The notes below the pieces were generated by a model. The model had not been told where the DNA came from, did no database searches, and was given only the letters and a program-made list of their open reading frames with translations. Source: Enteroscipio rubneri (GTDB lineage Bacteria; Actinomycetota; Coriobacteriia; Coriobacteriales; Eggerthellaceae). Taken from it: a DNA stretch of 64,000 bases. A program made the position numbers and the translations under genes. The stretch is from the NCBI RefSeq assembly GCF_002899715.1, contig NZ_PPEK01000011.1, forward strand, positions 39,122 through 103,121. The letters are read 5' to 3'. Positions 12,794-29,500 of this stretch are shown piece after piece. Each line of letters starts with the position of its first letter. Within the stretch, counting starts at the first letter, position 1.

Positions 12794-15700
12794 GGTTTCG
12801 GCTGCTGTGCGACGCCGGCGCCGCACAGCACGTGTCGCGATGGCGGCGCACGTCAAGGCCGACAGCGCCAGGGCGCTTGTCGCCGCCGCCGTCGGCGCTG
12901 CGGTGTCGCCCGTGCGTGCGAGGGGCTTCGGCGTGGCGCCCCCTTCTGTGGCGTTGGGCGTCGGTTGGGGTTGCGGGATGGGCTCGGGCTCGACTGCCGC
13001 CCCCGTTTTCACCAGAATGCGGCCGGTGCCGTTTTCGTCGGCGTAGATGGAATCGGCCCGTATCACGCCGCTCAGATCGTCCTTGATGAAGGAGATGAGC
13101 GCCTCGTAATCCAAGCCCTGCTCGGAGACGAGCACCTTCGCATCCTTGAACATGGAGAACCCGTCACCGCTGTCTTGCAGCAGGTAGGTGATGGACGAGA
13201 CGGTGTAGGTTTTGCCCAGATCGATGGGTTCGCCGCCCACGCGCACGTTTTGCACGCGCCGCGCGCCCTCGATGCCCACGAACACACCCTTTTCGTCCAG
13301 CTTCACGGGCGAGGGGATATCGGAACGTATCTCGTAGGTGAGCCCCGAGGTTTGCAGCAGCCCGCCGTTGGGCTCGGGGTAGAGGCGCGCGCCCATTTCC
13401 AGCGCGTCGACGATGGTCTGGCCGGTGGCTTCCACCTTGCAGAGCGTGTTGCCGAACGGCAGCACCGCGATGGCGTCGCCGTACGTGATGTCGCCCACGG
13501 CCACGTCGGAGCGGATGCCGCCTCCGTTCATGAAGCCGATGTCGGCGCCGAGCGATGCGCGCACGGCGTCGGCTGCAAGGTCGCCCAGGTTCGTCTCGCG
13601 CATGCGCACGGCCCAGCTATGCTGCGTGTCGCTCTCCACGGCCACCAGCTTGACCTCGGTGCGGGCGACCACCTTGTCCAGCGTTTTGCTCAGCCTGTCC
13701 TCGATGTCCTTGATGAAGGCGGCGGTGTCGGGGTCCTGCGCCACGGGAGGCTTCACTAGACGCGTTTCGATCTTCCCCGTCGTGGGATGGATGATCACCT
13801 CGCCGTAGGTTTGCAGCTGTGTGCCGGTTTGCGCCAGAAGCACGTCCCTGCCCGCCTTGTTGGCGACGCGCTGTTCGTACTGCTCGTGGGAGTGGCCGTC
13901 GATGAACACGTCGATGCCCGTGGTGTTCGCGATGACGGTGTCCGAGCGCCAACGGGCGGCGACGCCCGACTGGCCCAAATGTCCGAGGGCCACCACGTAG
14001 TCGGCTCCGTTCGCGTGGGCCTCGTCGACGGTTTGCTGGACGCGGTCGTAGAGCATCTGCCCCGTCTCGTCTTCGCAGAAGCCGTAGACGTCGGTCCCGC
14101 TCGCGTCCTTGAAGTGCGCCGGGTTCGACTTGGTCAGCGACTCGGGCGTGGAGATGCCCACGTAGGCCACGCGCACGTTGCCGTACGTTTCGATCGTGTA
14201 AGGCGAGAACTCGGTTGCGCCCGTTTCCAGGTTGTCGAAGTTGCACGACAGGTAGGTGGCGTTCGAACGGTCGACGAGCCTGCGCAGCTGATCCATCCCG
14301 TAGTCGAACTCGTGGTTGCCGGGTATGGCCAGGTCGTAGCCGACCTGGTTCATGATATCCACCAGGTCGGCACCCTGCGAGAGCGTTCCCAGGGGCTTGC
14401 CCTGCACGGCGTCGCCCGCGTCCACGAGGGTGACGTTGTCGGCGCCGTAGGCCGCTTCCGCGTCCTTGAGCGCCTGGGAAACCCCGGCGTAGCCGATGCT
14501 CGTAGCCGTGCCGTCCTCGTCGAAGGTCTGGTCGACGCCGCAGTGCACGTCGTTGGTGTGCAGGATGGCGATGGGCGTGTCGGGCCCGGCGGGCGTTTCG
14601 GTGGTGTACGCCTTCAGCAGGGCGTTTCCCGCCGTGTAGCCGGCCCCGTCTTCGAACAGGTTCTCGCGGGCCATGTCGTGCCAGTCGGACGTCCCCTCGG
14701 TGTAGTAGGTTTGGCCGGCCGCGCAGTCGATGGCGGCATACTCTTGGCTCGCATCGTCGACTTCGGCGAGCATGAGGTAGTTCCCGTTGGGCTCCTGTGC
14801 GGAAGCGACCACCGAGAAGGTGTCGCCCGCGATGACGGGAAACGCATCGCTGCCCAGGTCGATGGTGGTGTAGCCTGCGTTGGCCCCGGTAAGCGTCGTA
14901 TGCCACTTCAGGGTGCCGCTTTGCGGGTTCAGCGTCCCGCCGTCGGTCAGGCCGGTGGGGTTGCGATAGACGGTGATGTCCACTTGGGAGCAGGCCGTTG
15001 GTAGAAACACGCTGACTGCCTGCACGGTCTCGCTGCCGCGCGCCTCGAATACGTTGGCGAACTGGATGCGCTGGGTGTTGCTGAACCCCGTCTCGCCGAC
15101 GCCCACCCCGTCGTACTGGTAGATGCCGTCGTAGGCGTGGTCGGTGCCGTCGGCGTCGTAGGTTGCCTGTTCTGCTTGGTAAGACGTGGGATTCGAGAAG
15201 CTGGTGTCGTAGTAGGACAGGTAGAAGCAGCCGTCCTGGTGGCCGCTCGTCCCGGAGCCCCAGCTGTTCTTGACGATCCAAGCGCCGTCGCCTTCCGGTT
15301 GGGTGGAAAACTTCTCCTTCGGGAAGCTGTCGTCCCACCCGATGATGCTCACCTCGTGATTCGCCAGCATCTCGGCGTTGTCGGCCGTCTTGCTGTAGAA
15401 GTAGGCGCTCGTTGCGGGGTTCCACGTGCCCCGCCCCGTCATATTATTCGTGATCGCGTTGTCGGCGTAGAACGACACGTCCACGACGCCGTTTTCCATG
15501 AGGCACGTCTTGATGGCGTCGACGGCGCTGGGATCGCGACGGTGCTCCAAGGTGGGCGACCCGCCTTCGTGCTCCTGCCAGGTGTACACGTTGGGCTCGG
15601 GAAGAAACATGACGTTCTGCACGTGCACGTCGGACTGGTTGCGCAGGGCGGCGTCCGGTGCGCCCATGCTGGCATCGTTGATGTACGGGGCCTTCTGCTC

Positions 15701-16306
15701 GTCCACGGCGCCGTACCAGCGCATGAGCGTGGCGGCGGACAGGTTTCGAGCCCCGCCCGCGTCGTAGTCGGATCGGCCGGTGGTGTTGAGGAACGTGTCG
15801 CCGCCCGCCCACCGGCTGTCGTCGGCGCTGTCGTCCGCGCCGTTGTACGCGAACCATGCCAGATGGCGCTCGGCCAGGTCGGGGCTGCTGGGAGCGCCTG
15901 TGGCATGGTCCGTGACCAGCAGGTTCGACTCGAGCGACGACAGTGCGCCAAACGACCAGCAGTCGCCGAAGGGGTACTGGTCTTTGACGCTGGTCGAGAG
16001 GCTCGCCCCACCCGCTCCCGCCGTGCGCAGGTCGTAGGAGTCGGGGAGGGCCGCAAGCGCGTTGGCCCCCGATGCGGGGTTCAGCAGGGAGGGGTCGTTG
16101 AGGCTGAACACAGGCCCGCGCTCGGTTTCCACCATGCGGCCGAGCGGCTGGAGCGTGCCGACACTGGCGCTCGAGCCGGTGCCGGCGGGATCGGCGGCGC
16201 TGTCGGGCTCGGCGAAGGCGGGAACGGGGAGCAGTGTCGCCGCGAACGCGAGGGCGAGCGCGGCGCGTCCAAGAGCGCCGAACGGGTTGCAGGAGGGCTT
16301 CTTCAT
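12788..16306 (-). CDS. Sortase-anchored fusion of papain-like (C1) peptidase and 5'-nucleotidase
   Basis: 1172 residues. There is a signal peptide ending near AFA-EPD (residue 32). A C1 peptidase domain follows with catalytic C116 (QYPFGDCWSFG), H317 (NHEVSIIGWDD) and N347 (WIVKNSWGS), then a lectin-like beta domain at about 400-520. From about 578 a UshA/CpdB-type metallophosphoesterase begins (ILHTNDVHCG, DAGDAVQG, GNHEFDYG), with the 5'-nucleotidase C-terminal substrate domain at about 870-1090. The C-terminus has a Pro-rich stretch, an LARTGD sortase-like motif, a hydrophobic helix and a basic tail. It probably acts outside the cell, cutting peptides and dephosphorylating nucleotides for salvage. 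Each half is a known family; the combination is unusual. SD AGAAGGA precedes the ATG. Confidence 0.88.
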   Translation of the reverse strand: MKKPSCNPFGALGRAALALAFAATLLPVPAFAEPDSAADPAGTGSSASVGTLQPLGRMVETERGPVFSLNDPSLLNPASGANALAALPDSYDLRTAGAGGASLSTSVKDQYPFGDCWSFGALSSLESNLLVTDHATGAPSSPDLAERHLAWFAYNGADDSADDSRWAGGDTFLNTTGRSDYDAGGARNLSAATLMRWYGAVDEQKAPYINDASMGAPDAALRNQSDVHVQNVMFLPEPNVYTWQEHEGGSPTLEHRRDPSAVDAIKTCLMENGVVDVSFYADNAITNNMTGRGTWNPATSAYFYSKTADNAEMLANHEVSIIGWDDSFPKEKFSTQPEGDGAWIVKNSWGSGTSGHQDGCFYLSYYDTSFSNPTSYQAEQATYDADGTDHAYDGIYQYDGVGVGETGFSNTQRIQFANVFEARGSETVQAVSVFLPTACSQVDITVYRNPTGLTDGGTLNPQSGTLKWHTTLTGANAGYTTIDLGSDAFPVIAGDTFSVVASAQEPNGNYLMLAEVDDASQEYAAIDCAAGQTYYTEGTSDWHDMARENLFEDGAGYTAGNALLKAYTTETPAGPDTPIAILHTNDVHCGVDQTFDEDGTATSIGYAGVSQALKDAEAAYGADNVTLVDAGDAVQGKPLGTLSQGADLVDIMNQVGYDLAIPGNHEFDYGMDQLRRLVDRSNATYLSCNFDNLETGATEFSPYTIETYGNVRVAYVGISTPESLTKSNPAHFKDASGTDVYGFCEDETGQMLYDRVQQTVDEAHANGADYVVALGHLGQSGVAARWRSDTVIANTTGIDVFIDGHSHEQYEQRVANKAGRDVLLAQTGTQLQTYGEVIIHPTTGKIETRLVKPPVAQDPDTAAFIKDIEDRLSKTLDKVVARTEVKLVAVESDTQHSWAVRMRETNLGDLAADAVRASLGADIGFMNGGGIRSDVAVGDITYGDAIAVLPFGNTLCKVEATGQTIVDALEMGARLYPEPNGGLLQTSGLTYEIRSDIPSPVKLDEKGVFVGIEGARRVQNVRVGGEPIDLGKTYTVSSITYLLQDSGDGFSMFKDAKVLVSEQGLDYEALISFIKDDLSGVIRADSIYADENGTGRILVKTGAAVEPEPIPQPQPTPNATEGGATPKPLARTGDTAAPTAAATSALALSALTCAAIATRAVRRRRRTAAETL

Positions 16307-16604: not shown

Positions 16605-17444
16605 CTAGCACTGCGCACGCGGCGCGGCGAGCGCTTGCTTGACGCTTCGATAGCGCCGCTCGGCGATGGGGTACTCCGAACCGTCGTCGAGCTTGGCCCG
16701 ATAGCCCTCGATGCTGACGATGCGGCCCCGGTGCACGAGGCAGCTGCGGTGAAGCCGCAGGAAGTCTCGCGCGGGCAGCTCCTCTTCGATGTCCGCCAAC
16801 GCCGCGCGCACGGTGAACTCGCCGTGGGCGTGCTTGACGACGCATCGAGGGCCTTCGGACTCGACGGCGTGCAGCTCGTTGGGGTGCAGGACATGGAGGT
16901 CTCCGCCGATGTCGCGAAAGCTGATTTTCCCCGTGCCCGATCCTTGGTCATCGAAATGCTCGTAGAGGAACTCGATGGCGTTCTTCCCCGTGTCGAGCGA
17001 CGGCAGAAGCGTGTTCGCATCGGTGGTGTTCGAGACGTGCAGATGCACGATGCGCGGTCCGTCCGGCGTCGGGGCCCAAACGTAGGTCGCGCGTTGCTCG
17101 AACGGAATGCTCCGCTCTCCGTCGGTCGACACGACCAGTAGCGTGTAGCAGGCCGAAACAATCCACGTGCCCGCCCGCTTGCGTGCGCGCCATCGCTCGT
17201 CGGCCAAGGCCAGGCGGATGCCGTATTCGGGGCGGAGAATGTCCTGCATGGCCTTCTTGCTGGAGGCAGTCTGGCAAGCGAACGGTCCCAGCCATTCGAC
17301 ATCGTCGGCCATGTGCGCCAATGCGACGTCCATGTTTCGCGTCACGAAATGGTTGACGAGGGACTGCCTCGACAGCTTGATGATGGCGTGCTCCTTGGGA
17401 AGCTGCTCGGCGGCTTGTTCTTGATTGCCGTTCGTCTCAACCAT
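16605..17444 (-). CDS. SnoaL-like sensor fused to LytTR DNA-binding domain
   Basis: 279 residues from the ATG at 17444, with SD AAGGAAG. Residues ~15-140 resemble a SnoaL/NTF2-like alpha+beta barrel, with HFVTRNMDVALAHMADDVEW at its start, a fold that often binds small hydrophobic ligands. The last ~105 residues are a LytTR domain (HVLHPNELHAVES, FLRLHRSCLVHRGRI, YRAKLDDGSEYPIAERRY). There is no receiver domain, so it may be a one-component regulator that senses a ligand directly. It lies about 300 bp upstream of, and on the same strand as, the peptidase-nucleotidase gene, its most plausible target by context. The SnoaL assignment rests on pattern only. Confidence 0.75.
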   Translation of the reverse strand: MVETNGNQEQAAEQLPKEHAIIKLSRQSLVNHFVTRNMDVALAHMADDVEWLGPFACQTASSKKAMQDILRPEYGIRLALADERWRARKRAGTWIVSACYTLLVVSTDGERSIPFEQRATYVWAPTPDGPRIVHLHVSNTTDANTLLPSLDTGKNAIEFLYEHFDDQGSGTGKISFRDIGGDLHVLHPNELHAVESEGPRCVVKHAHGEFTVRAALADIEEELPARDFLRLHRSCLVHRGRIVSIEGYRAKLDDGSEYPIAERRYRSVKQALAAPRAQC

Positions 17445-17537
17445 AGGCCCGCTTCCTTCCAAGGTGCTGAAAAGAAGAGGATGGCACAAACGCCGCGGGC
17501 GAGCAAGGGCGCCGCTCGTGAGCGCGCCCTTCGACGC

Positions 17538-18140
17538 CTAAGATGATACTTCAGCGTCCTTCAATATGAGGCTCACGGCTTTCTGGATGGTTTCGCGGTC
17601 GTAGGGTACCCCCATGAAGCAGGAGTTGATGATGGCGCCTTCCATGAACGCACAGAGGATCTTCGCGCGCTGCTCGTCCATGAACGGCGCGCACCTGCGC
17701 AAAAACGACTCGAAGGCGCTCCTTGTTATGTCCTCCACCTCGGGATCCTCGATCGCCGCAGCATAGAGGGCGGCGTCGGCGTGCACCCGCTGCTGGTCCG
17801 AGAGATACTCGTTGATGAAATCGGCAAGCGCCGTCGCGTTCTGGATTCCCTGCTCGGTGACGCGGAACGCCTCGTCGTACTCGTGCTCGATCCTGCGGGC
17901 GACCTCGGCTAAGCCCTCGCGGCGCAACTCGTCGATGCTCTTGAAATACTGGGTGGTCGAGCCCAAGGGCACGCCGGCCTCTTCCGCCACCCGCCTGTTG
18001 GTGATTTTACTGCTCCCCTCGCGTGCTATGAGGTTGGCAGCGGCGTCGATGATGGCCTGCCGTCGACCGGCAGGGTCTCGCGGCGCGCGCTTCTTCGGCT
18101 TCTTCCCGGACCTCTCTGTCTTCGTCGTGTCTTCTTCCAC
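17538..18140 (-). CDS. TetR-family transcriptional repressor
   Basis: Residues ~27-75 form the TetR helix-turn-helix (RQAIIDAAANLIAREG, TNRRVAEEAGVPLGSTTQYF). An all-helical ligand and dimer region follows. I chose GTG at 18140 because AGGAGGT (18146-18152) is 6 nt upstream; an in-frame TTG at 18146 overlaps that SD. It is divergent from the lipoprotein-MFS pair. Two copies of a 20-bp imperfect palindrome in the shared upstream region are the likely operators, for autorepression and pump induction. The cognate ligand is unknown. Confidence 0.9.
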   Translation of the reverse strand: MEEDTTKTERSGKKPKKRAPRDPAGRRQAIIDAAANLIAREGSSKITNRRVAEEAGVPLGSTTQYFKSIDELRREGLAEVARRIEHEYDEAFRVTEQGIQNATALADFINEYLSDQQRVHADAALYAAAIEDPEVEDITRSAFESFLRRCAPFMDEQRAKILCAFMEGAIINSCFMGVPYDRETIQKAVSLILKDAEVSS

Positions 18141-18209
18141 GGGCAACCTCCTGTGCCGTCCGCTGTCTTACTGCTGTCTCCGTGATCCCATTCTAATCGA
18201 AATTTTTCT

Positions 18210-18229
18210 TAATGTACACTTGAACATTA
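18210..18229. promoter_or_regulatory. Putative TetR operator 1
   Basis: TAATGTACACTTGAACATTA, an imperfect palindrome with TAATGT/ACATTA outer halves, in the divergent region between the TetR gene and the lipoprotein-MFS pair. Confidence 0.7.
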
Positions 18230-18251
18230 ACTCTCCAGCTGCTATGCTTTG

Positions 18252-18271
18252 TAGTGTACATAAGTACATTA
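18252..18271. promoter_or_regulatory. Putative TetR operator 2
   Basis: TAGTGTACATAAGTACATTA, a second copy of the palindrome at 18210, offset by 42 bp, or four helical turns, so both sites face the same side of the DNA. It is 37 bp upstream of the lipoprotein start. Confidence 0.7.
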
Positions 18272-18308
18272 ACTAAGTTCCAAGGGTTTTCGAAGGGAGA
18301 AGAGGTCG

Positions 18309-18956
18309 ATGAACATGAAGAGGATAGGCACCCTGGCAGCCGCTTTCGCCTTGACCGCGTTTGCCGCCTGCGCGCTCGCCGGCTGCGGAGCGAGTCTGGA
18401 CCGCGAAGTGACCGTGCAGGACATAACGTTCAAGGTCCCGAAAACGTGGCTGGAAAGCCCGGGCGGCAACGGCTCGAGCGGAGCGGTCGTGTTCACGGAG
18501 GACAACGAGGACTTGGATGAGGACGAGACGGGCAACAGCCTGACTATCAGCTACGAGAAGCTTGGCGCGCCGACGGCCGCCGTTGTCGAGGAACAGGTCG
18601 GGGCCGCCGAGCAAGAGGGCAAGGTCATCGAGGAAGAGGGTGCCATGCCGGCTGAGAAGGCCGAGAGCGCCAAGCCCGTCGCCCGCACGGCAGCCGAGGC
18701 CATCGCGGCCAAGCAGGCCGATCTGGAGAAGAAGTATGGAATTACCGCGTGGAGCATCGACAAGGAGAAGTCCAAGGTGATCGATGGTGCCCAGGTTACG
18801 GTGTACGAGTACAGCTTCGTCAAGGACATTGAGGGTCAGAAGCGTAAGTACGAGAGCAAGGCGGCCTACGTCGTCACTACCGACACGCTCTACGAGATCG
18901 CGGTCGTGGGCGACAAGGCGGACATCAACGGCGTCGTGGACAGCATAGAGCTGTAA
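18309..18956 (+). CDS. Small exported lipoprotein of unknown function
   Basis: 215 residues. The signal peptide MNMKRIGTLAAAFALTAFAA ends in the lipobox LAGC (Cys near residue 26), so it is probably lipid-anchored outside the membrane. The mature part has a TVQDITFKVPKTW beta-rich start seen in small substrate-binding-like lipoproteins, an acidic Glu/Ala-rich middle (about 75-130), and a C-terminal beta region. SD AAGGGAGAAGAGG precedes the ATG. It is followed 57 bp later by the MFS gene and shares the TetR operators, so it is probably an accessory of that exporter or part of the same stress response. Confidence 0.8.
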   Translation: MNMKRIGTLAAAFALTAFAACALAGCGASLDREVTVQDITFKVPKTWLESPGGNGSSGAVVFTEDNEDLDEDETGNSLTISYEKLGAPTAAVVEEQVGAAEQEGKVIEEEGAMPAEKAESAKPVARTAAEAIAAKQADLEKKYGITAWSIDKEKSKVIDGAQVTVYEYSFVKDIEGQKRKYESKAAYVVTTDTLYEIAVVGDKADINGVVDSIEL

Positions 18957-19013
18957 GCGCCAAGAAGGAGAGCAACGTATCTGAGAGAACACCGGTAGGA
19001 AGGTACACCTATT

Positions 19014-21308
19014 ATGGATGATTCTATTGTTATCAAGCCGCAAACGCTCTCGAAGGGCCGTTTGTGGACAGCTCTCATCGCGATATTGTTGGGACAGTTC
19101 GTGGTCGCCATCGACCTCACCGTTCTCAACATCGCGCTGCCCGAGCTCACCCGGGACCTCAGTCCCTCGTCAGACCAGCTTCTCTGGGTGGTCGACGTCT
19201 ACTCGCTCGTCTTGGCGGGCTTCCTCGTTGCCACCAGCTCGCTTTCGGATAGGTTCGGCAGGAAGAAGATGCTCCTCGCAGGCTTCCTGATCTTTGGCAT
19301 AGGATCGGTGCTGGTCGTGTTCATAAACGACGCGAGCCAGCTGATTGCCATCCGGGCCTTCTTGGGCATCGGCGGTGCGATGATCATGCCCATCACCATA
19401 TCTATGATCCGAAGCATCTTCACGGATTCGAAGGAGCGCGCGATAGCCGTGGCCGCTTGGTCGGCCATCAGCGCCATCGGCATGGCGGCCGGCCCGCTCA
19501 TCGGCGGCTTTCTGCTGGAACACTTCAATTGGCACTCGGCGTTCCTCGTGAACGTGCCCATCGTGGGCGTCGCCTTCCTGCTCGGCATGTTCGCCATGCC
19601 GGAGGTGAAGCTCAAGAACCCCGGGCGCTTCGACGTTCTGGGGTCGGTGCTTGCCCTCGCCGGCATGGTAGCGCTTCTGTGGGGCATCAAGCACCTTGCG
19701 GCCGAACTCGCGTTCGACGTTCCCGGCGCGGCGGCAACCCTCGGCGGCCTGGCGCTCATGGCCCTGTTCGTCTTCCGATGCCTGAAATCGCCGCATCCCA
19801 TCGTCGATCTTTCCCTGTTCCGCAGCCGGACGTTCTCGGCCGGCGTCATCGCCACCATGGCGTGCACGTTCGCCCTGGCCGTGCTCTTGTACATGCTGGC
19901 CCAGTGGCTGCAGCTGGTCAACGGCGACGGCACGCTCGAATCGGGCATCCACCTCATTCCCATGTCAGTGGCCACGCTGATCTCGAGCTTGGGCGCGGCC
20001 GCCCTTGCCATGCGCTATCAGGCGCGGCACGTGGTGGCGGCCGGCCTGGGACTCGCTTCGGTGGCCATGCTCATGATGTTCTTCTTCCAGGACGACCTCT
20101 CCCTCACCGTCGTCATCGTGTCCACCTGCCTGGTGGGCCTGGGAACCGGCGCCCTGGCAATCGGCGCATCGCTCATCATGGCCGAGACGCCCGTTGAGAA
20201 GGCGTCGAGCGCGGGCAGCCTCCAGGAGATATCCTACGACCTGGGCAACGTGCTGGGTGTGGCCATCCTGGGAAGCCTCGCCTCCATCATCTACCGCTCG
20301 GAGCTCGGCACCGGCGCCCTGCGCGCCATGGGCCTGGACGGGCAGCTGATCAACGCCGCGAAGCAGTCGTTCGCGGCGACCACCGAGATCGGCAACATGC
20401 TCGGAATGCCCGAGCTGATCCAACGAGGTGCGGACGCGTTCAACCAGTCCCTGGTCGTGACGTGCCTCGCGGGCGGCATCATCATCTTGGTGACGGCCAT
20501 CGTCGTGTGGAAGCTCATCCCCAAAGGGCTGAAGATCACCGAGGAAAGCAATGCGGAAGTCCCGTCAGACGATCGCTCGCTGCCCGCATCAGGCGAAGGC
20601 CCGTCGGTTGACGGCGGCGATGCTGGCGCCGCTCAGCCTGAGCCTGCCGGGGGCGCGTCCTCTGCGAACCTGGACGACGCGAAGATGCTGCCCGGGGCCT
20701 TCCCCGTGCCTGCCGCGACCCTGTCCCGCGGGGGAGGCGCCCTGGCGCAGTCTGCGGCGATTGCCAAGATCATTGAGGATGCGGGTATCGGCGTGGTGAA
20801 CGTGCCCCTCGACATCGCCACCTTGGATCGGATGGGGGAGATGTGCAACGACCTGGGGATCGACGTGACCACGGCGTTCATCGTGCTCGCCAAGAAGGCG
20901 GTGGAGGAAGGCCGGCTCCCGCTCGGCCTGCCCGCCGACGCGGGGTGCAGCGCCGAGGATCTGGCTCGCATCGAACGCAACGTGGAGGCCCTTGACGAGG
21001 GACGCGGGGTAATGCACGAGTCAGACGACCGGATGAGGACGTGGGCCCCCGAGGCATGGGCGGACTACCGCTCGTGGAAGAGCCAGGACGAGGATGTCCA
21101 CCGCTTGGTCAAGACGCTCGTCGCGAGCATCGAGTCCGACGGAGCGGGTGCGGGGGTCGGCGATCCCCGGCCGCTGAAGGCAGGCGAGACGTCGCTCTGG
21201 ACGCGCCGCATAGCCGACGACCACCTGCTGGTGTACCGCATGGACGGCGACGACCTGCAGATCATCGCCTGCAAGAGCCACAGCACCATGGCAGCGAGGC
21301 CGTTGTAA
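19014..21308 (+). CDS. DHA2-family MFS efflux pump with a C-terminal DinJ/RelB-like plus YoeB-like extension
   Basis: 764 residues in one uninterrupted frame. Residues 1-~505 are a 14-helix drug:H+ antiporter of the QacA/EmrB class: GQFVVAIDLTVLNIALP in helix 1, the loop SDRFGRKK, and the motif-C-like GMAAGPLIGGFLLEHF. After a ~60-residue Ala/Gly/Pro/Glu linker, 593-672 resembles a RelB/DinJ antitoxin (VNVPLDIATLDRM, LGIDVTTAF, KKAVEEGRLPLGLP). Residues 674-758 align without gaps to E. coli YoeB: AWADYRSW, PLK, W-x-RRI, HxLVY, IIACKSH. YoeB catalytic E46, R65 and Y84 are R719, L738 and S757 here; H83 is kept as H756. The toxin part is therefore probably not an active RNase. The pump likely exports a toxic compound under TetR control; the role of the tail is unknown. 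SD AGGAAGG precedes the ATG. Confidence 0.88.
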   Translation: MDDSIVIKPQTLSKGRLWTALIAILLGQFVVAIDLTVLNIALPELTRDLSPSSDQLLWVVDVYSLVLAGFLVATSSLSDRFGRKKMLLAGFLIFGIGSVLVVFINDASQLIAIRAFLGIGGAMIMPITISMIRSIFTDSKERAIAVAAWSAISAIGMAAGPLIGGFLLEHFNWHSAFLVNVPIVGVAFLLGMFAMPEVKLKNPGRFDVLGSVLALAGMVALLWGIKHLAAELAFDVPGAAATLGGLALMALFVFRCLKSPHPIVDLSLFRSRTFSAGVIATMACTFALAVLLYMLAQWLQLVNGDGTLESGIHLIPMSVATLISSLGAAALAMRYQARHVVAAGLGLASVAMLMMFFFQDDLSLTVVIVSTCLVGLGTGALAIGASLIMAETPVEKASSAGSLQEISYDLGNVLGVAILGSLASIIYRSELGTGALRAMGLDGQLINAAKQSFAATTEIGNMLGMPELIQRGADAFNQSLVVTCLAGGIIILVTAIVVWKLIPKGLKITEESNAEVPSDDRSLPASGEGPSVDGGDAGAAQPEPAGGASSANLDDAKMLPGAFPVPAATLSRGGGALAQSAAIAKIIEDAGIGVVNVPLDIATLDRMGEMCNDLGIDVTTAFIVLAKKAVEEGRLPLGLPADAGCSAEDLARIERNVEALDEGRGVMHESDDRMRTWAPEAWADYRSWKSQDEDVHRLVKTLVASIESDGAGAGVGDPRPLKAGETSLWTRRIADDHLLVYRMDGDDLQIIACKSHSTMAARPL

Positions 21309-21385
21309 GAATCTTCCTTCCCTCTCAGCTTGCATGCAGCGGCCCTTTCCGAATGGAAGGGCCGCCTTGTTGGCGAACGCCCGAA

Positions 21386-21677: not shown

Positions 21678-21830
21678 CTATTTCTTTGCGGCTCCGATGC
21701 GGCAGATCGTGGTTCCGCAATCGGGGCACTTGCCCTTGGTGATGGGCTTGCCGTTCTTCGTCGTGCCCTCGACGGGATCCGTCATGATCTTCTTGGCCTT
21801 GCACTTCACGCAGTACGCTTCGATAGCCAT
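21678..21830 (-). CDS. Small zinc-ribbon protein (DUF5679-like)
   Basis: 50 residues starting MAIEAYCVKCKAKK. Two CxxC pairs (CVKC and CPDC) are separated by about 25 residues, the form of a compact zinc ribbon. The central phrase DPVEGTTKNGKPITKGKCP is typical of the DUF5679 family found in actinobacteria. I chose the ATG at 21830 because GAGGTG precedes it and upstream codons are not conserved-looking. A TATACT -10-like element lies about 95 bp upstream on the minus strand. The function is unknown; a nucleic-acid or ribosome-related role is only a guess. Confidence 0.85.
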   Translation of the reverse strand: MAIEAYCVKCKAKKIMTDPVEGTTKNGKPITKGKCPDCGTTICRIGAAKK

Positions 21831-21970
21831 GGCTGCAAAAACACCTCGCTGTTCTGTGGTTGAGCAGGATACCCTGTCCTGCATCTCTCGAATCCGTGCG
21901 TTAGATACGCGCACGTGCTATTTAGTATACGGTAAAGCCCACGCGCGCTTCCTGGCCTCTTTCGGTACGG

Positions 21971-24900
21971 TTATATATTCTTCAACAACTCCATAACAAA
22001 GTCGGCGTTGCTGCGCAGCGTCTCTTCGTCGATGTTTTCCATCATATCGTTGGCCTGGGCGTACAACGCCGGCTTTCCGCCTTCTATGCCCACGAGATGC
22101 ATAGCTTGATGACCGTGTCGCACGGCGAAGGAAGCCGCGCTGTCCTCCCAGAGCAACTGCGCCGATCCAATGCTCACCCCGCTCGCCTGCGACGCCTTCT
22201 TTACATAGCGCTTCATGCGTGACGACGTTTTCACTGCACGCAGCGTGCCCTCCTTTTCGATCATGCACAGATCACCCGCGCCGAGCGCGTCAAGATCAAT
22301 GATGATCGCACCGCGCAGATCCTGCTGATGCTCATCCAAGAATGCCCGCATACCAGCATTTTTAGACAGCTCGGAACCGAGTGCGACGAACCATACCTCG
22401 GTGTTGATATCCGGATTGCGGAACTGGTACACCTGCCTGAGCTCATCAGCGATTTCAGGATCTTCTTCATACCGACCATACGCGTCCGAACCGTCCAATC
22501 CGTCGAACTCGTCCGCTCCTGCGCCATGTTGCTCCACACGCGTTGACGAGAACGCGCCGCCGTTCCACGGCCGGCGATCATCAGAATCGTAGTAGTCGGC
22601 GTCGTTTGGATCAAAATCGTCTTCGAACTGTCCAGTCGCGCTATCGAATGCGTCTTCTTCGTACACATCCGCATCCTCGTCGCGGAAACTTTCCCAGCCG
22701 CCGCGTTCGGCACCTGCAGAGCGCGCATCGAACGTCTCATCGACGTCGAGCCATTCCTGCGGGCTCGGCTCGATCTCCTTTTCTTTCTTGCGGAAGCGCC
22801 CGAAAAGCCGTTGGACGCGCGACTTGGGCATCTCCACGTAACCGGGACCGGCGTACGCTCCCGTTTCGGTAATGTTATCGTCGTACGCAGAGTCATCGGC
22901 GTCATCCACGTAAATGTCGTCGGGATCAACGTTGTCCAGCAGCTCGTCACCGATCGGGGCGAAGGCACCAGTCGCCCCGGCGGGAGCAAACGAGCCGGCC
23001 GCACTCACGTTTTTGGGCGAAGCGTCGTCGTCCTTCACACGAATAGCACCGGAAAGCGAAGGCAGCATCGAACGCAAAGCGGGCTTCTTTGTGGATTCGC
23101 CCGGGGCCGCTCCCCCTGCCTCCGGCACATCCCCATCCGGGGCGCCAGACCCGCCGAGGTTGATGGAAGGGAGCATGGTGAGCAAGCTCTTCGCTGCTGT
23201 TTTCGCAGAGCCTTCGACGTCGGCGAGCGGGGCACGTTGCTTGGGAAGCTCTGAAATAGGCGTGGGATTGGCAGCGGCCATGCCGATGTCCGGCAGCTCG
23301 ATGGGGCGGCGACCGTGTTCGGCGGGCGTGCCTATGTTCTCGTCACCATCCGCACTCGGCACGTCGAGCGGGGTGATACGGCCGCTCGCATCGATCGGCA
23401 CACCTGTCACATCCACGCGCTTGTCGGTACGCGGGCCGTCCATGAACTGCGCACGCGACTCCTCCTGCACCTTCTGCGGATCAAGGAACGAAGGCATGGG
23501 CACGGCGCCCGCATCGGGCATATCGTCGAGGCGCAAATCGTTAACATCAATGGGGGCCATGGCGGTGGTGGCCGCCGGATCGACTGGAGGCTGCGACGCG
23601 GAGGCATCGACCGAGTCCTGCGACACAGGCGCAGTCGGGGGCCGACCGCTCGGCTGGGAGGCGTCCTCGCGTGTAGGTTCCTGCGGTTCGGCCGTCGCGG
23701 CCCAGCGAGGTGCCTTCACTTCGCGAATAACGCCCGCATCGGATTCCAGTACCTGTTCGAGACGCTTCTCCACGACTTCGTTCGCTTCGGCGAAGTGCCC
23801 AGCGCTCTCGCTGACCGCGGCGTCGAGTGCGGAGGCGTAGCGGGAGCGCTGCACCGGCTTGTCCTCGTTGCGAGGCTTCTTGGCCTTCTCCTGAGCTTTC
23901 TTGAACCAGTCAGGCACACCGACGGAAGGTTCCTCGGCGCGCGATGACTGGATGACGGCGGACTGCGATATATCCGATGCGGAGGAGATGGTGTCTTCCG
24001 GATGCGCGGCTTCAGCGTTTGCTAGCGCAGCCTGCATGGTATCGGGCGGAATCGAGGTAAGGGCCTCGCGCGTCTCGTCGCGCAACTCGCGAAAGTCGTC
24101 ACCGGACGGCTTCGCGATGGGAGGCTCCTTCACCTGCACGAGGTTTTCTGCAAGATCGGAGGAGTAGACGTTGGGCATCGGCTTTCCGGACAAGGCGGCG
24201 ACGGCGGCCTTTGCAGCCGCAAGACGCGCTTCGGGCGTCTGGGGCGCCGGCTCGGGCGGCACCATACTCGCGGCTTCGTACACAATTTGAGCGCCTTCAG
24301 GAACGAGGCCTTCCGCGCGCGCAGCCTCCTCTCCATGGATGAGAGCCGCCTCTCGTTCCGCAAGGTCGGCTTCGCTCACGCGTCCGCGACCGACCCGGCG
24401 AGCCGTCTCAAGAAGCACAGCCGTTCCAGCGGCGTTGCAGTTGGCAGCTTCGTTGTACGCGGCCAACTTATGGACGAGCGCGAAGATAAGCACGATAGCA
24501 AGCGGCACCAGCGCAATCACAACGAGTACGTTCATCACGGTGACCGCCATCCCCGTATCGTTCGCGAACACGATGTTGCGAACGACAAGCAGAACGGGGA
24601 GCAGCACCATGGCGACGAGCTCCGCCCATTGCAGGACAGGCAGAAGCTTCAGCAGTGGCCTGTTCAGCTCGGCGCGCACCTTCCCGCTGTCGTAATGCGC
24701 GACAAGGATCACCTTGCGGCGGCGCGAGCCGCCTGCTTCGGTCGAAAAGCCGGGCTCGTACTTGGCGACTACATTTTGGCTCACGCCGCGCGCGAACGCC
24801 TTTGAAAGCACCGGATGGTCGAACGCCTCAGCTGCGAACAGAAGCGCCGTGATAGCTGTGATCGCGATTGACGCGATACCCAACACGGGAAGGAACAGGG

Positions 24901-25117
24901 AAAGCGCCGCAACGACAAGGGCGAGGATGCAGCACAGCACGCGAGGGGCGTCGCTGTTCGGAGCGCCGCCGAAATCCTCGATTGCGGCCGAGAGGCCGGC
25001 TTCCTTTTGCATCTGCTCAGTGATATATAACGCCGCTTGCTGCTCCTCCTCAGTTCCCGCAGGGCGGGGACCGATTTCCTGGGAAAGATATGCGACGTGG
25101 TCGAGTAACTCCGGCAT
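21971..25117 (-). CDS. Membrane-anchored M28-like peptidase with a very long acidic insertion, metal site degenerate
   Basis: 1048 residues. The N-terminus (LLDHVAYLSQEIGPRPAGTE) and C-terminus (VWFVALGSELSKNAGM, IIIDLDALGAG, LLWEDSAASF) match the two ends of the M28/aminopeptidase S fold. Four hydrophobic helices (about 58-97 and 160-216) interrupt the first half. Between about 240 and 890 there is a low-complexity Glu/Asp/Ser/Pro-rich insertion, likely disordered. Metal ligands are partly lost. HYD (H141, D143) is present, but the usual GxxDNAxG reads ANCNAAG, so the bridging Asp is C227, and the usual Glu-Glu pair reads ELS. It may be a non-catalytic relative. It follows the coiled-coil protein gene by 57 bp, probably in one operon. 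Confidence 0.75.
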   Translation of the reverse strand: MPELLDHVAYLSQEIGPRPAGTEEEQQAALYITEQMQKEAGLSAAIEDFGGAPNSDAPRVLCCILALVVAALSLFLPVLGIASIAITAITALLFAAEAFDHPVLSKAFARGVSQNVVAKYEPGFSTEAGGSRRRKVILVAHYDSGKVRAELNRPLLKLLPVLQWAELVAMVLLPVLLVVRNIVFANDTGMAVTVMNVLVVIALVPLAIVLIFALVHKLAAYNEAANCNAAGTAVLLETARRVGRGRVSEADLAEREAALIHGEEAARAEGLVPEGAQIVYEAASMVPPEPAPQTPEARLAAAKAAVAALSGKPMPNVYSSDLAENLVQVKEPPIAKPSGDDFRELRDETREALTSIPPDTMQAALANAEAAHPEDTISSASDISQSAVIQSSRAEEPSVGVPDWFKKAQEKAKKPRNEDKPVQRSRYASALDAAVSESAGHFAEANEVVEKRLEQVLESDAGVIREVKAPRWAATAEPQEPTREDASQPSGRPPTAPVSQDSVDASASQPPVDPAATTAMAPIDVNDLRLDDMPDAGAVPMPSFLDPQKVQEESRAQFMDGPRTDKRVDVTGVPIDASGRITPLDVPSADGDENIGTPAEHGRRPIELPDIGMAAANPTPISELPKQRAPLADVEGSAKTAAKSLLTMLPSINLGGSGAPDGDVPEAGGAAPGESTKKPALRSMLPSLSGAIRVKDDDASPKNVSAAGSFAPAGATGAFAPIGDELLDNVDPDDIYVDDADDSAYDDNITETGAYAGPGYVEMPKSRVQRLFGRFRKKEKEIEPSPQEWLDVDETFDARSAGAERGGWESFRDEDADVYEEDAFDSATGQFEDDFDPNDADYYDSDDRRPWNGGAFSSTRVEQHGAGADEFDGLDGSDAYGRYEEDPEIADELRQVYQFRNPDINTEVWFVALGSELSKNAGMRAFLDEHQQDLRGAIIIDLDALGAGDLCMIEKEGTLRAVKTSSRMKRYVKKASQASGVSIGSAQLLWEDSAASFAVRHGHQAMHLVGIEGGKPALYAQANDMMENIDEETLRSNADFVMELLKNI

Positions 25118-25174
25118 GCGATTTGCCTTTCGTTCCTTGGAGATTCTGCAAGGCACATATTATCCAAGTATACG

Positions 25175-26524
25175 CTATTTGATCTCTGCACCCAAATAAT
25201 CATGAATAAAAGCATCCGCTGTTCCAGCTTGTGAACGTGCTGTTGAATATGCTTGTTGCAGGGCAGCGGATTCGCCGTCGTAGGCGGCGAGCACCAAGCT
25301 CGACGGGTCATCTGGAAGCTTCTCGGCCAAAGCGGCCGCTTCGGCGTCTGCTGCGTTGTACGCATCGTTTTGAGCAGCAGCTTCCTGCTTGTTCTTGGCG
25401 AGAAACGCATCGTCTGAAGCGATGGCACTCGCAAGCGCTTCGGCGCGCTTGTTTAAGTACGCTTCGATGGCGGCGGCATCGATCGAAGGGAAGGCGTCCG
25501 TCGCATTGGAAAGCGATGCGCGCGCAGCATCGAGAGCATCCAAAGCCTTGTTCGTCTGGTCCTTGGAAGCCTGCACGTTCTCGGCTGTCGTCTCGGTCAC
25601 GAGCGCAGCAGCCTGACGAGCAAGATCATCGGCTGCAAGCAGATTCGACCACGCCTCGTTCACGGAGCCGAGAGCCTGCAATGCGCTGTTCGATAGCGCG
25701 GCAAGCTGCGACCCCGACTCAAGCAGGGCACGGCGGGCGGCTATAGCGGCCACCACTTGGTTGGCGGCCTCTTTGTCCCGAGGAGCCCGTAGGGCAACCG
25801 ATGCAGCACGGGCCAGTTCGTCGGCTTCGTCCAGCGCAGCGGTCGCCTCATCGAGCTGATCGTCGAGATCGGCGCGCTTCTGCGCAGTATCAGATTCAAA
25901 CGGCTTCTCCACTACCACATCAAGAACGTGAAGCGTCTCGTCGGTGCTGGCCATCAGATCCAGTGCATCGTCGAGCTGCGAGACGTTCGCCTGATGCGAG
26001 CGGTACTCGTTATACAGGTAGAAACCGCCCGCAACCACTAGAAGCACCGACACGATGCTCACGATCGCTATAGCGATCGTGCGGCTGAGGCGTCGGCGTG
26101 CTTTGCGGCGGGCTATCTCCTCTTCGGGAGACCGGCTGTTTCCGCGCGCCGGCTCGGATGCAAGAGCCATGGGAGCACGTCCGGGGGGCGTTGGCTGGTC
26201 CCCTGGTACGAGCGTGGCAGGTGCGTCGGCACCCAACACGCCAAACGAGGACGGGGCGTCCTCGTCGACAGAGACGAAGTCCCCCGTCGAAAGGTGGAGG
26301 CCACGCGCCTTCGTTGGGGTTGCGATGGGCTTCTTGCGCCGTCCCGGAAGCGTGAATAAGGTGATACGCCCAAATCGCGCAGGACGCTTCCCATCCTCAT
26401 CCGCTTCGCCGTCGAGAGCTTGCTTCGCCGCGTCGAGAACGCTGAACGATATTTCGTTGGACGTCCCCGCCGTATGGCGCTTGATATGCGCCGCGCGCGT
26501 GATCTTCTCGTCGAGCCTACCCAT
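25175..26524 (-). CDS. Single-pass membrane protein with extracellular Ala-rich coiled coil
   Basis: 449 residues. Residues 1-145 are cytosolic, with a basic patch RRKARRRLSR just before a single transmembrane helix (about 149-171, TIAIAIVSIVSVLLVVAGGF). The remaining ~275 residues are Ala/Asp/Glu-rich with heptad spacing, so a long extracytoplasmic coiled coil is likely. I recognise no enzyme or binding motif. It starts 25 bp after the upstream DinG-like gene and precedes the M28-like gene, so the three are probably cotranscribed. The membrane topology suggests an envelope role. Confidence 0.7.
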   Translation of the reverse strand: MGRLDEKITRAAHIKRHTAGTSNEISFSVLDAAKQALDGEADEDGKRPARFGRITLFTLPGRRKKPIATPTKARGLHLSTGDFVSVDEDAPSSFGVLGADAPATLVPGDQPTPPGRAPMALASEPARGNSRSPEEEIARRKARRRLSRTIAIAIVSIVSVLLVVAGGFYLYNEYRSHQANVSQLDDALDLMASTDETLHVLDVVVEKPFESDTAQKRADLDDQLDEATAALDEADELARAASVALRAPRDKEAANQVVAAIAARRALLESGSQLAALSNSALQALGSVNEAWSNLLAADDLARQAAALVTETTAENVQASKDQTNKALDALDAARASLSNATDAFPSIDAAAIEAYLNKRAEALASAIASDDAFLAKNKQEAAAQNDAYNAADAEAAALAEKLPDDPSSLVLAAYDGESAALQQAYSTARSQAGTADAFIHDYLGAEIK

Positions 26525-26549
26525 GGTTCCCTACGCCCCCAACGAGACG

Positions 26550-29500
26550 CTACTCGCCTCCTCCGCGGGCGAGTTCCTCGGCAATCTCCGCAGAGGGCAG
26601 CACTTTGATGGTACGACTCGGCAGCGAGTTGAGGAAGGCTTTGCCGTAGCTTTTCGTGACCAACCTTCGATCGGCCAGTATGAGCACGCCGGAATCGTCG
26701 GCTTTCCTGATGAGGCGTCCCGCTGCCTGCTTCGTCTCGAGCACGGCGGCCGGCAGCACATAACGTCTCCAGGCTCGGTCATCGCGTGCAGCCCGCTCGC
26801 ACGATAACGGATCGGTAGGCTTCGCAAACGGCAGCTTCGGGATGACCACCCCCTTCAGTGTCGCACCCGGTGCATCGAATCCCTCCCAGAAGCTCTTGAG
26901 CGCGAATAGCGACAAGTGTTCGTCAGACAGGAAATCGTCTCGAAGACCCTTGACCGACACGCCCCATTTCTGGCACACCACGCGCAGCTCGTCCGCTTTG
27001 AGCTGCGGCTGCACTTCATCGAAGCAGCGCTCCATCTCGCGACGATTCGTGAATAGCGTCAGCAACGACCCCTGCTGAGCGCGATGCACATCCACGAGCA
27101 GCCGCTGCAGTGCAGGCAGATAACCGGGATCGTTCGGCTCGGGCATATCGCTCGCCACGTAGACCGTCATCTGCGCATCAAAATCGTAGCTGGAATCCAG
27201 TTGGCATGTCCGGCACGTCGACGCCTCCGATGCATTGAGGCCGAGGGCGCTCTCAAACGCGTCGAAGCGGCCGTCCACCGCAAGCGTCGCAGACGCAAAC
27301 ACCACCGAGTGGGCGCGTGCGAACAGCGTTTCATTCATCGCCTCACCCACATTGAGGAGTAGTGCTTCAAACTTTTCCGAGGCGCGATCCTTCTTCCGGT
27401 TGAGCGTGGCTGCATAGGCGAAGGTCTCGGGCGCATCGAACAAGATGATCTGCGCAGCGTTTATCTGGTCTTTCAACTCCATGGCAATCGAGGCTATCTC
27501 GCGCTGCACCTCGGCGGCGCCTTCGAAGTCTTCCAGATAACCCACAAGCTCTTGGCAAGCCGTCACCAGCTTCTCGGCCGCATCGACCATGGCGCGCCCG
27601 AATGACACGACCTCTGCGAACGTCGCGCTGCCGCGGATATCGTCGTTGATCCAGAGATCCACAGTCTCGTAGCTTTTTCCGCGCTTGTTTCGATCGAAGA
27701 ACAGAAGGTCTTTCATATGCGCGGCGAACTCGCGAGCGGTTGCAGCATAGGCTGAACCAACCGCTCGCGCCTTGGCTGTGAGCGCATAGAACAGCGTAGC
27801 GCCTTCGTCCCCGATCGGAGCTGAAACCCGTCGCTCAGCACGCATAAATACGTTGCGCGATGGTTCGGCTGCATCGACGCGATTCGCGATGCGCACGAGA
27901 TCTTCCGCCGCGATGGAGCGCGAGAAAGCACGCCGGGCCTCGGCTTCGGCGCCGTGGGCCTCATCCACCGTCCAGTACCGGATGGGCGGCAACAACCCAC
28001 CGTCTGCAACAAGATCACAGAAGAGTAGACTGTGATTCGTCACCACGATGTCGGCGTCCTCAGCTTGGCGGCGCGCACCGTGTACGAAGCACGTTGTACC
28101 GAAATAGGGGCACTTCCGTCGCAGACAATCATGGCTTGTCGTGGTGATCGCGCGTCTTGGCAACGCCCGATAGTCAATCTTGAGGCCGTCCATATCGTCG
28201 TACCCGGTCTGCTCAATATAGGAGAGCAGCGCGGCGAGCGCTGGTGCCTGGGACTGCTCCTTACCTGCAACAAGCCTCATGCCTGGACCGTCGGCCACGA
28301 TGCGGCCGATGCGCCGCAGGCATGGGTAATGCGAGAATCCTTTCAGCGGGGCAAACGTCAGCCTCGGCCCTTCAGGGTTTTGCGCCTCAAGGGCATCGGC
28401 GAGAGCGGGAAGCTCGTGATACACCAGCTGATCGAGCAGCGCGTTTGTTTTGGTCGCCACGCCCACGGCTATACCATTCGCCTGCGCAGTCAGCGCGGAA
28501 GGAACCAGGTAGGCCATGGATTTACCCACGCCCGTTCCCGCTTCGACCATAAGGTTTGCAGAAGCTGCGAATGCAGCGCGCACCGCTTCCGCCATGGCAA
28601 GCTGCTCTTCGCGTGGTTCGAAATCGCCATACAAAGTCCCGACCAAACCGTCTTCCGAGAAGGCACAAGCGATATCCTCTTCGGTGGGAAACATGAGTGC
28701 GCGCATCGGATCGGCGGCGATGTCGTCGGCATCCATCTTTCGAGCGTGCTCTTGTTTCCCCAGGCGATCGCGACGCAGGGCACGCATCGAAAAGCTTAGG
28801 TCGGCGGCGCTTACACCAGCTACGATATCAGGGGACATGCCCCCGAACGGGCGCCTAGGAGCATTGGTAGAGGAGGCGGCTACTCCGACTTCCAAGGACT
28901 CAAAGGGTGTGGGCTCGGAAGCTGCGTCTTTTGACGCTGCGGGCATCGATGCCGTCGCCGAGGCTGGCGCAGGCGCGGGAGCGGGCTCCAAGCACTCAGA
29001 AACCGCAGACTCGACTGGCTCGCACGTTTCGAAAAGGCTCGGGGATCCTACTGTTAACTGGTCTTGTGATGGAACGGTAACGCCTGCGGCCTCTCGATAT
29101 GCGTTCGCAAAGTGGTCGAATACCACTTGCGTCGACCACTGCGACACGTCTGCCATACCCGCTATCTCGCACACGAGCGCCGGCGGCATCGTAGCGACTC
29201 CCGCAAACAGGATACGCAGAATCGCGCAGGTGGCTGCAACGTCCGCATCGGCTCGGTGCGTCGAGAGCGGCGCTCCGAAAGCGCGCACAAGGTCTAGAAG
29301 TCGATGCGAGGTAAGCCGAGGTAGCGCGATGCGGGCGAGGTCAAGCGAGTCGATCCAGGTGTTCTCGAGTAGCGAGTAGCCGCTCGGGTGTCGCGTCGTG
29401 AAAGTCCGGTCGAAATCGACGTTGTGAGCCACCACCTTCGAAGTACCGATGAACGCGACCAGATCTGCGAGCGCTTCGGACGGCATCGGAGCGTCGGCCA

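What the first reader, a model, noticed from the sequence alone, without database searches (positions are those of the whole stretch)
19014..21308. MFS drug exporter fused to a DinJ/RelB-like and a YoeB-like domain with lost catalytic residues
One frame encodes a complete 14-helix pump, a linker, an antitoxin-like segment (593-672) and a toxin-like segment (674-758). The last aligns without gaps to E. coli YoeB, keeping WADYRSW, RRI, HxLVY and IIACKSH. Three of four catalytic residues are changed (E46R, R65L, Y84S) and H83 is kept. A toxin-antitoxin pair may have become a cytosolic control or ribosome-contact module of a pump. I know of no such fusion.
Basis: partly seen in the sequence, partly recalled or inferred. 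Interest (0 to 1): 0.85.

Follow-up and report, generated by a model that had tools for sequence, protein, structure and literature searches.

The report
Drug pump carrying a disarmed toxin-antitoxin
A bacterial gene joins a drug-export pump to an antitoxin-like and a toxin-like domain in one protein; most of the residues that the toxin needs for cutting, and one that likely contacted DNA, have been replaced, so the tail is predicted to serve as a structural part of the pump, probably holding two pumps together, rather than as a poison.

Summary
ORF 19014-21308 is one frame: a QacA-type pump (1-510), a variable linker, a RelB/DinJ-type ribbon-helix-helix (RHH) segment (about 591-642), an antitoxin-like wrap (643-675) and a YoeB-type domain (676-757). 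It is no sequencing error: 21 protein clusters in two branches carry it, among them a 750-aa Eggerthella cluster that NCBI lists as 'Txe/YoeB family addiction module toxin'. Its closest unfused relatives in the family are RHH-YoeB pairs. The tail is under purifying selection in the one informative comparison, weaker than the pump's. Of seven toxin-less pumps in the same clade, three keep an RHH remnant and four keep nothing. Best reading (inferred, 0.42): a disarmed toxin-antitoxin complex kept as a dimerising cytosolic cap of the pump. Almost as likely (0.41): a tolerated, slowly eroding passenger.

The parts
19014..20543 (+). QacA-type DHA2 drug/H+ antiporter, residues 1-510
   Evidence: Pfam MFS_1, NCBIfam QacA/B model; 435-438 bits to solved QacA, keeping D34, D61, Y63, R114, E405 (=E407) and D409 (=D411), but T321 at QacA D323 (residue roles from passages of PMC10425836); model
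20544..20783 (+). Low-complexity, length-variable linker, residues 511-590
   Evidence: 75 of 80 positions vary among 18 rows; pLDDT below 50 over 510-599; dN/dS 0.68 between G000 and G055
20784..20939 (+). RelB/DinJ-type RHH segment, residues 591-642; strand arginine replaced by P598 (codon 20805-20807)
   Evidence: Alignment to free-standing antitoxins; P598 in 19 of 19 rows of A1; TIGR02384 below cut-off
20940..21038 (+). Antitoxin C-terminal wrap segment, residues 643-675
   Evidence: Aligns with the C-terminal part of free-standing antitoxins; dN/dS 0.11 between G000 and G055, yet 19 of 33 positions vary among 18 rows; helix modelled at high confidence
21039..21284 (+). YoeB-type domain, residues 676-757: E46 to R719 (21168-21170), R65 to L738 (21225-21227), H83 kept as H756 (21279-21281), Y84 to S757 (21282-21284)
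   Evidence: PF06769 and TIGR02116; YoeB chains as top fold matches; residue tables
17538..18146 (-). TetR-family regulator, divergent; part of the same cassette
   Evidence: Pfam TetR_N E 9e-8; homologue beside the fused pump in G068 (98%) and G055 (82%), and beside the RHH-only pump in G086 (42%)
18309..18956 (+). Small putative lipoprotein (lipobox read by eye) upstream of the pump; no Pfam family
   Evidence: No Pfam hit at 0.01; homologue in G068, G055 and G086, and a partial match downstream of the pump in G065

Best explanation
The gene encodes a QacA-type efflux pump joined in one polypeptide to an antitoxin-like and a YoeB-toxin-like domain that lack the toxin's Y84 and the antitoxin strand's arginine, and this disarmed pair likely persists as a cytosolic cap that brings two pumps together. 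Shown: the single frame, the domain matches, the shared losses, and purifying selection on the tail in one informative comparison. Inferred: since RHH folds form as dimers, an RHH at each pump's C-terminus would pair two pumps, and each chain's wrap segment would clasp its own toxin-like domain, rebuilding the antitoxin2-toxin2 block without its activities. Inferred too: the two common losses freed the module from killing and from operator binding, after which each lineage altered the remaining active-site residues in its own way. Whether the cap changes transport is untested.
For: (1) The same architecture is in 17 clusters of the window's branch and 4 of the Eggerthella/Gordonibacter branch, and in 4 of 138 family genomes. 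(2) Loss at the two key sites is general: Y84 absent in 25 of 25 fused rows, present in 20 of 20 free toxins; strand Arg absent in 26 of 26 tails, present in 12 of the 13 free antitoxins whose strand could be read, of 16. A Y84A mutant of E. coli YoeB is reported inactive (passage of PMC3814384). (3) RHH positions G615, I616, A621, F622 and A626 are invariant in six rows from both branches. (4) Purifying selection, G000 against G055: tail 48.5/120.8 synonymous against 65.5/380.2 nonsynonymous, Fisher p 6e-7; wrap 1e-5, toxin 0.006, RHH 0.018. (5) Of seven toxin-less pumps in the clade, three keep an RHH remnant (G086, L055, P0019). (6) A review says that folding and dimerisation of minimal RHH proteins may be one process (passage of PMC4803016). 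(7) In the same order, 12 of 395 genomes have another RelB-type RHH joined to an exporter part, an ABC ATPase.
Against: No dimer was modelled: the tool folds one chain, and the RHH region has only middling pLDDT (about 57-75) with no strand formed. A strand proline, present in most rows, could weaken the two-stranded ribbon. In L055 the RHH is cut within its second helix. Four of the seven toxin-less pumps in the clade keep no tail at all, and 11 of 16 close pumps in family genomes lack it, so it is dispensable. Tail dN/dS against G055 (0.11-0.45) exceeds the pump's 0.095, and in the close pair G000-G068 the toxin part is at 0.62. Among 18 rows the wrap varies at 19 of 33 positions, the toxin at 46 of 82, the RHH at 24 of 52, the pump at 94 of 510. 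Against G065 the toxin part shows no constraint (dN/dS 0.95, p 0.48) and the tail only p 0.09; sites are near saturation. The absence of stops says little: a neutral simulation expects 1.4, none in 25% of trials. Tail-only gene calls (P0020, 23 members; P0021, 6) and a frameshifted copy (P0022) exist.
Confidence: 0.42

Rival explanations
1. Tolerated passenger: the pump gene once fused with a toxin-antitoxin operon, the toxin was inactivated, and the tail is now eroding under weak constraint with no job beyond not harming the pump.
For: Tail absent in 4 and cut to an RHH remnant in 3 of the 21 rows of the clade; faster evolution than the pump; active-site residues changed differently in each lineage; no constraint visible on the toxin part against G065; broken copies exist.
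Against: Between G000 and G055 nonsynonymous change is clearly below synonymous change in the tail, also in the toxin part alone; E46R is in 20 of 20 window-branch rows.
Confidence: 0.41
2. Residual RNA or ribosome function: the toxin-like domain still binds or slowly cuts RNA and couples export to translation stress, most plausibly in the Eggerthella branch.
For: P0026 keeps E46, R65 and H83, and its branch stays basic (pI 9.5-10.7, 5 of 5 rows).
Against: Y84 is absent in 25 of 25 rows and Y84A is reported to abolish YoeB activity (PMC3814384 passage); the window branch is acidic in 20 of 20 rows.
Confidence: 0.08
3. Membrane-tethered autoregulator: the RHH binds the pump's own promoter and reports pump state.
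For: RHH is a DNA-binding fold; an inactive toxin-antitoxin pair that regulates by promoter binding has been reported (PMC11826091, abstract and outline only).
Against: The strand arginine is gone in 26 of 26 tails; a TetR gene with operator-like inverted repeats already sits divergently.
Confidence: 0.05
4. Antitoxin decoy: the tail soaks up free YoeB toxins.
For: The wrap segment is present and constrained against G055.
Against: The genome has no other YoeB-family domain, and the tail's own toxin-like domain would fill the wrap.
Confidence: 0.03
5. Sequencing or assembly error hiding a stop between pump and tail.
For: None found.
Against: About 20 other clusters (16 of the 17, and 4) and three other genomes have the same open frame.
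Confidence: 0.01

Closest known systems
QacA/QacB-type DHA2 multidrug/H+ antiporters
   Same: 435-438 bits over 13-511 to solved QacA; most vestibule residues kept
   Different: The solved QacA chains have 514-520 residues; here some 250 further residues follow; QacA D323 is T321
RelB/DinJ-type RHH antitoxin plus Txe/YoeB toxin operons
   Same: Same order, head to tail; 41% (RHH) and 43% (toxin) identity to the G102 pair in the same family, 51% and 57% for the Eggerthella fusion
   Different: Fused to a pump; Y84 and the strand arginine gone; E46 and R65 replaced in this branch
Single-gene RHH-YoeB toxin-antitoxin fusions (Gerdes 2025, PMC11980606; passages and sections 24 and 27 read)
   Same: RHH joined to YoeB in one chain
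   Different: No transporter is described with them; the words transporter and MFS do not occur in that main text; its supplements were not read
ToxM, BECR-fold toxins with a membrane segment (same paper)
   Same: A RelE-superfamily domain tethered to the membrane
   Different: ToxM has its toxin N-terminal to a TM region and an extracellular C-terminal domain; here a complete pump precedes an antitoxin-like and a toxin-like domain
Inactive toxin-antitoxin pair MtvT/MtvA (PMC11826091, abstract and outline seen)
   Same: A toxin-antitoxin pair kept without detectable toxicity
   Different: Separate plasmid-encoded proteins that act by promoter binding

Membership tests
QacA-type DHA2 efflux pump | Full-length match and conserved proton/substrate acidic residues | tested here: met
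   match over 13-511; D34, E405 and D409 kept, D323 not; the QacA/B NCBIfam model is below its exception cut-off, so it is QacA-type, not QacA itself
QacA-type DHA2 efflux pump | Export of cationic drugs | not testable with these tools
   Needs a transport assay
Txe/YoeB toxin | Family profile above curated cut-off and YoeB fold | tested here: met
Txe/YoeB toxin | Catalytic residues E46, R65, H83 and Y84 | tested here: not met
   R719, L738, H756, S757: one of four kept
RelB/DinJ antitoxin | Family profile above curated cut-off | tested here: not met
   TIGR02384 20.7 bits against 45.65 and no PF04221 hit for the window protein; PF04221 is listed on P0023-P0026
RelB/DinJ antitoxin | RHH fold with a DNA-contacting strand | tested here: inconclusive
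   Helices predicted at pLDDT 57-75, strand not formed in the monomer model; strand Arg replaced by Pro
Type II toxin-antitoxin system | Active toxin neutralised by its antitoxin | not testable with these tools
   Sequence predicts an inactive toxin; activity needs an assay
ToxM | N-terminal toxin, central TM, extracellular C-terminal domain | tested here: not met
   Order is pump, antitoxin, toxin

The most novel reading that the evidence does not exclude
A complete type II toxin-antitoxin complex was domesticated once by a multidrug pump of Eggerthellaceae: stripped of nuclease and DNA-binding function, it now works as the pump's cytosolic pairing and gating cap, and the same order captured a RelB-type RHH a second time on an ABC exporter.
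Probability: 0.33. Interest if true: 0.82.

Novelty: new variant of a known kind. Interest (0 to 1): 0.62.

Why it matters
Type II toxin-antitoxin pairs are usually discussed as addiction or defence modules. Here both halves ride on a transporter, with both activities apparently lost and the folds kept, which makes it a natural test of whether such complexes can be reused as plain structural parts. It also matters for annotation: the common Eggerthella member (266 sequences, 418 contigs) is named as an addiction-module toxin, so a predicted drug pump is hidden under a toxin name. RHH-only and tail-less relatives give ready-made comparison pumps.

Tried and rejected
Scanning genome contigs with the tail alone gave no relatives; a scan with the pump alignment gave 12 loci, of which 8 (L055-L062) are close pumps. 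Searching the 99-aa toxin piece in the large protein database scored only 5 candidates and found 3 pieces of the fusion's own tail, no free toxin. The antitoxin stretch had no sequence match in the PDB at E up to 1. A stop-codon count as evidence for selection was dropped: in this GC-rich background neutral drift leaves no stop in 25% of trials. The first pump tree was run with some rows still holding alignment gaps, so the tree used is; both need five label changes. The toxin tree, with 12 of the 25 fused rows and 19 of the 20 free toxins (G026, partial, left out), puts the fused ones on one side of a branch at 90/91, which favours one capture but is not decisive. The pump tree (28 rows, 14 of them full fusions) leaves tail-less rows between two fused clades, so one capture with losses, or two captures, both remain. 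Papers: the listings (20 of 64 shown; 6 of 6; 12 of 22; 8 of 23; 2 of 2; 10 of 357) showed no title or abstract start about a pump fused to a toxin-antitoxin pair; (10 of 208 shown) put QacA and other efflux-pump papers first. Passages of PMC7354421 and PMC12790095 name Eggerthella and YoeB apart and describe no such fusion. In PMC2701414 only passages were seen: it set aside membrane proteins paired with Xre repressors because no type II system with a membrane component was then known. That no RHH chain stands among the best fold matches is not taken as evidence, since the toxin fold filled the list.

Full report
Observation. The frame 19014-21308 is open for 764 codons. Its first 510 residues are a QacA-type pump: the NCBIfam QacA/B model gives 448 bits and solved QacA 435-438 bits over 13-511. 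In that alignment D34, D61, Y63, R114, E405 and D409 match QacA D34, D61, Y63, R114, E407 and D411, while QacA D323 is T321; the roles come from passages of PMC10425836. A linker follows that varies at 75 of 80 positions among 18 rows. Residues 677-756 match Pfam YoeB_toxin at 69 bits, cut-off 27. The piece before it matches RelB/DinJ only weakly, below the cut-off.

Relatives. A search with residues 500-764 returned 18 proteins: 17 have the full fusion (one, P0002, is probably the window's own cluster), and one, P0019, stops inside the RHH. A search with the tail of the Gordonibacter sp. Marseille-P2775 protein (L056) returned four more full fusions, P0023-P0026. P0026, 750 aa with 266 members on 418 contigs, carries the NCBI name 'MULTISPECIES: Txe/YoeB family addiction module toxin [Eggerthella]'. 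That makes 21 clusters. Both searches scored only the candidates sharing most words. Gordonibacter lies in Eggerthellaceae; G065 is taken to be that Gordonibacter genome because contig length and protein agree, so the window's genome, in the same family, is taken as Eggerthellaceae too.

Distribution. Among 138 genomes of the family, 29 have a tail match: 4 are full fusions (G000, G068, G055, G065), G086 is a pump with only the RHH, and the other 24 are short free-standing frames. Of 16 close pumps in 15 of the 138 genomes, 4 have the full tail, 1 the RHH only and 11 no toxin-antitoxin tail (G089, two in G017, G018, G019, G021, G022, G023, G045, G076, and G030 with an unrelated lysine-rich end). 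Among 396 genomes sampled from the class, 91 have a tail match; no further fusion to this pump showed among the frames listed, but two long frames there (G376, 546 aa; G222, 476 aa) were not examined. L055, from an uncultured Coriobacteriia bacterium, has a still shorter RHH remnant.

Origin. The free-standing pair in G102 has antitoxin and toxin in the same order as the fused tail, and its toxin start aligns with the start of the fused toxin domain. Identity to that pair is 41% (RHH) and 43% (toxin) for the window protein, 51% and 57% for P0026. In a tree of 31 toxins, 12 fused rows fall on one side of a branch from 19 free ones, support 90/91. In the pump tree a clade of 21 rows (100/100) holds all 14 fused rows given, 3 RHH-only and 4 tail-less rows, with the fused rows in two clades. 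One capture with repeated loss is the simpler reading, inferred; two captures are not excluded.

Residues. Across 25 fused rows, which include near-copies: E46 is R in 20, E in 4, V in 1; R65 is L in 19, R in 4, V in 1, K in 1; H83 is H in 20, W in 2, L in 2, R in 1; Y84 is never Y. In 20 free toxins of the family, four of them near-copies of one another: E46 in 20, R65 in 20, H83 in 18, Y84 in 20. Only P0026 among the fused rows keeps E46, R65 and H83 together. Passages of PMC3814384 name Glu46 as general base, His83 as general acid, Arg65 as stabilising the transition state with Tyr84 involved, and report that Y84A abolishes activity. At the strand arginine's position there is Pro in 19 of 19 rows of A1, Pro in P0023-P0025 and Phe in P0026, Pro in G065, Val in G086 and Ile in L055: no Arg in 26. 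Of 16 free antitoxins, 13 show the strand, 12 with Arg and one (G031) with Ser. That this arginine contacts DNA is recalled from RHH repressors in general; a passage of PMC4803016 says that the strands both pair the dimer and contact DNA bases.

Selection. Between G000 and G055, dN/dS is 0.095 for the pump, 0.68 linker, 0.41 RHH, 0.11 wrap and 0.45 toxin. One-sided Fisher tests give p 0.018 for RHH, 1e-5 for wrap, 0.006 for toxin and 6e-7 for the tail, but 0.16 for the linker; G068 against G055 is alike. Against this: in the close pair G000-G068 the toxin part is at 0.62 (few changes); against G065, near saturation, the toxin part is at 0.95 with p 0.48 and the tail at p 0.09 (G055-G065 tail p 0.03). 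Among 18 protein rows the pump varies at 94 of 510 positions, the RHH at 24 of 52, the wrap at 19 of 33, the toxin at 46 of 82. So the tail is constrained, clearly less than the pump.

Charge. Free toxins have pI 7.8-9.8 in 20 of 20. Window-branch fused toxins have 4.5-5.5 in 20 of 20 rows, and the Eggerthella/Gordonibacter branch 9.5-10.7 in 5 of 5 (cut slightly differently). An acidic surface argues against ribosome contact in this branch; this is inference.

Neighbourhood. A divergent TetR gene and a small lipoprotein-like gene sit upstream; the three-gene group recurs in G068, G055 and G086. Between G000 and G068, of different genera, it is 96.5% identical over 17566-21366; beyond that, in the 19 kb compared with the window, only one 35-base match remains, so the group has probably moved between genera. 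G065 shares genes with the window from 21678 to 28597, downstream of the pump, so the fused pump lies at a shared chromosomal place in those two. The genome has no other YoeB domain and one other weak RelB/DinJ match.

How it likely works. The features kept are RHH-helix positions, the wrap and the toxin fold; the features lost are those for cutting RNA and probably for reading DNA. A dimeric RHH at the end of each pump would tie two pumps together below the membrane, with each toxin-like domain held by its own wrap as a rigid cap. The tie, the cap and any effect on transport are inferred. The passenger reading is almost as likely, because many relatives do without the tail and broken copies exist. 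On checking the draft against the calls, the variability of the wrap, the lack of constraint against G065 and the four tail-less rows in the clade were added, and the odds moved slightly, from 0.45 and 0.38 to 0.42 and 0.41 (novel case from 0.35 to 0.33).

Novelty. Single-gene RHH-YoeB fusions and a membrane-tethered RelE-type toxin are in print (PMC11980606; passages and sections 24 and 27). A pump carrying both halves of a disarmed pair was not seen in the listings, which cover a held open-access library only and were partly shown.

Noticed in passing
L072, L073 (1131-2072 +), L074, L075; also places listed: A second, different fusion in the same order: a RelB/DinJ-type RHH at the N-terminus of a LolD/MacB-type ABC exporter ATPase, with an FtsX-like permease frame beside it (by eye) in the four loci read; strand arginine kept in those four. 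Pfam RelB 37 bits, cut-off 22.4, on the one scanned (L073). 12 of 395 genomes, three genera. It may be a transporter subunit that also regulates its own operon.
   Followed up: partly
P0026: A 750-aa Eggerthella pump fusion is named in NCBI and UniRef as a YoeB addiction toxin/endoribonuclease; a predicted drug pump is hidden by the name of its tail.
   Followed up: partly
window 17566-21366: TetR-lipoprotein-pump cassette is 96.5% identical to one in a genome of another genus (G068, same genus label as G065), with only one 35-base match outside it in the 19 kb compared: probable recent transfer of just these three genes.
   Followed up: partly
window 18209-18272: Operator-like inverted repeats between the TetR gene and the lipoprotein gene: 10-nt arms 18209-18218/18221-18230 (90%) and 21-nt arms 18209-18229/18252-18272 (76%).
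   Followed up: partly
P0020, P0021, P0022: Tail-only 170-aa gene calls (23 and 6 members) and one tail that looks frameshifted, from a Gordonibacter urolithinfaciens MAG: in some strains the tail appears split from the pump or broken.
   Followed up: no
window 12788-16306 (-): A 1172-aa frame that reads as a papain-like peptidase part followed by a 5'-nucleotidase/UshA-like part with an LPxTG-like end (by eye).
   Followed up: no
window 16605-17489 (-): A 294-aa frame reading as an SnoaL-like domain joined to a LytTR-type DNA-binding domain (by eye, not searched).
   Followed up: no
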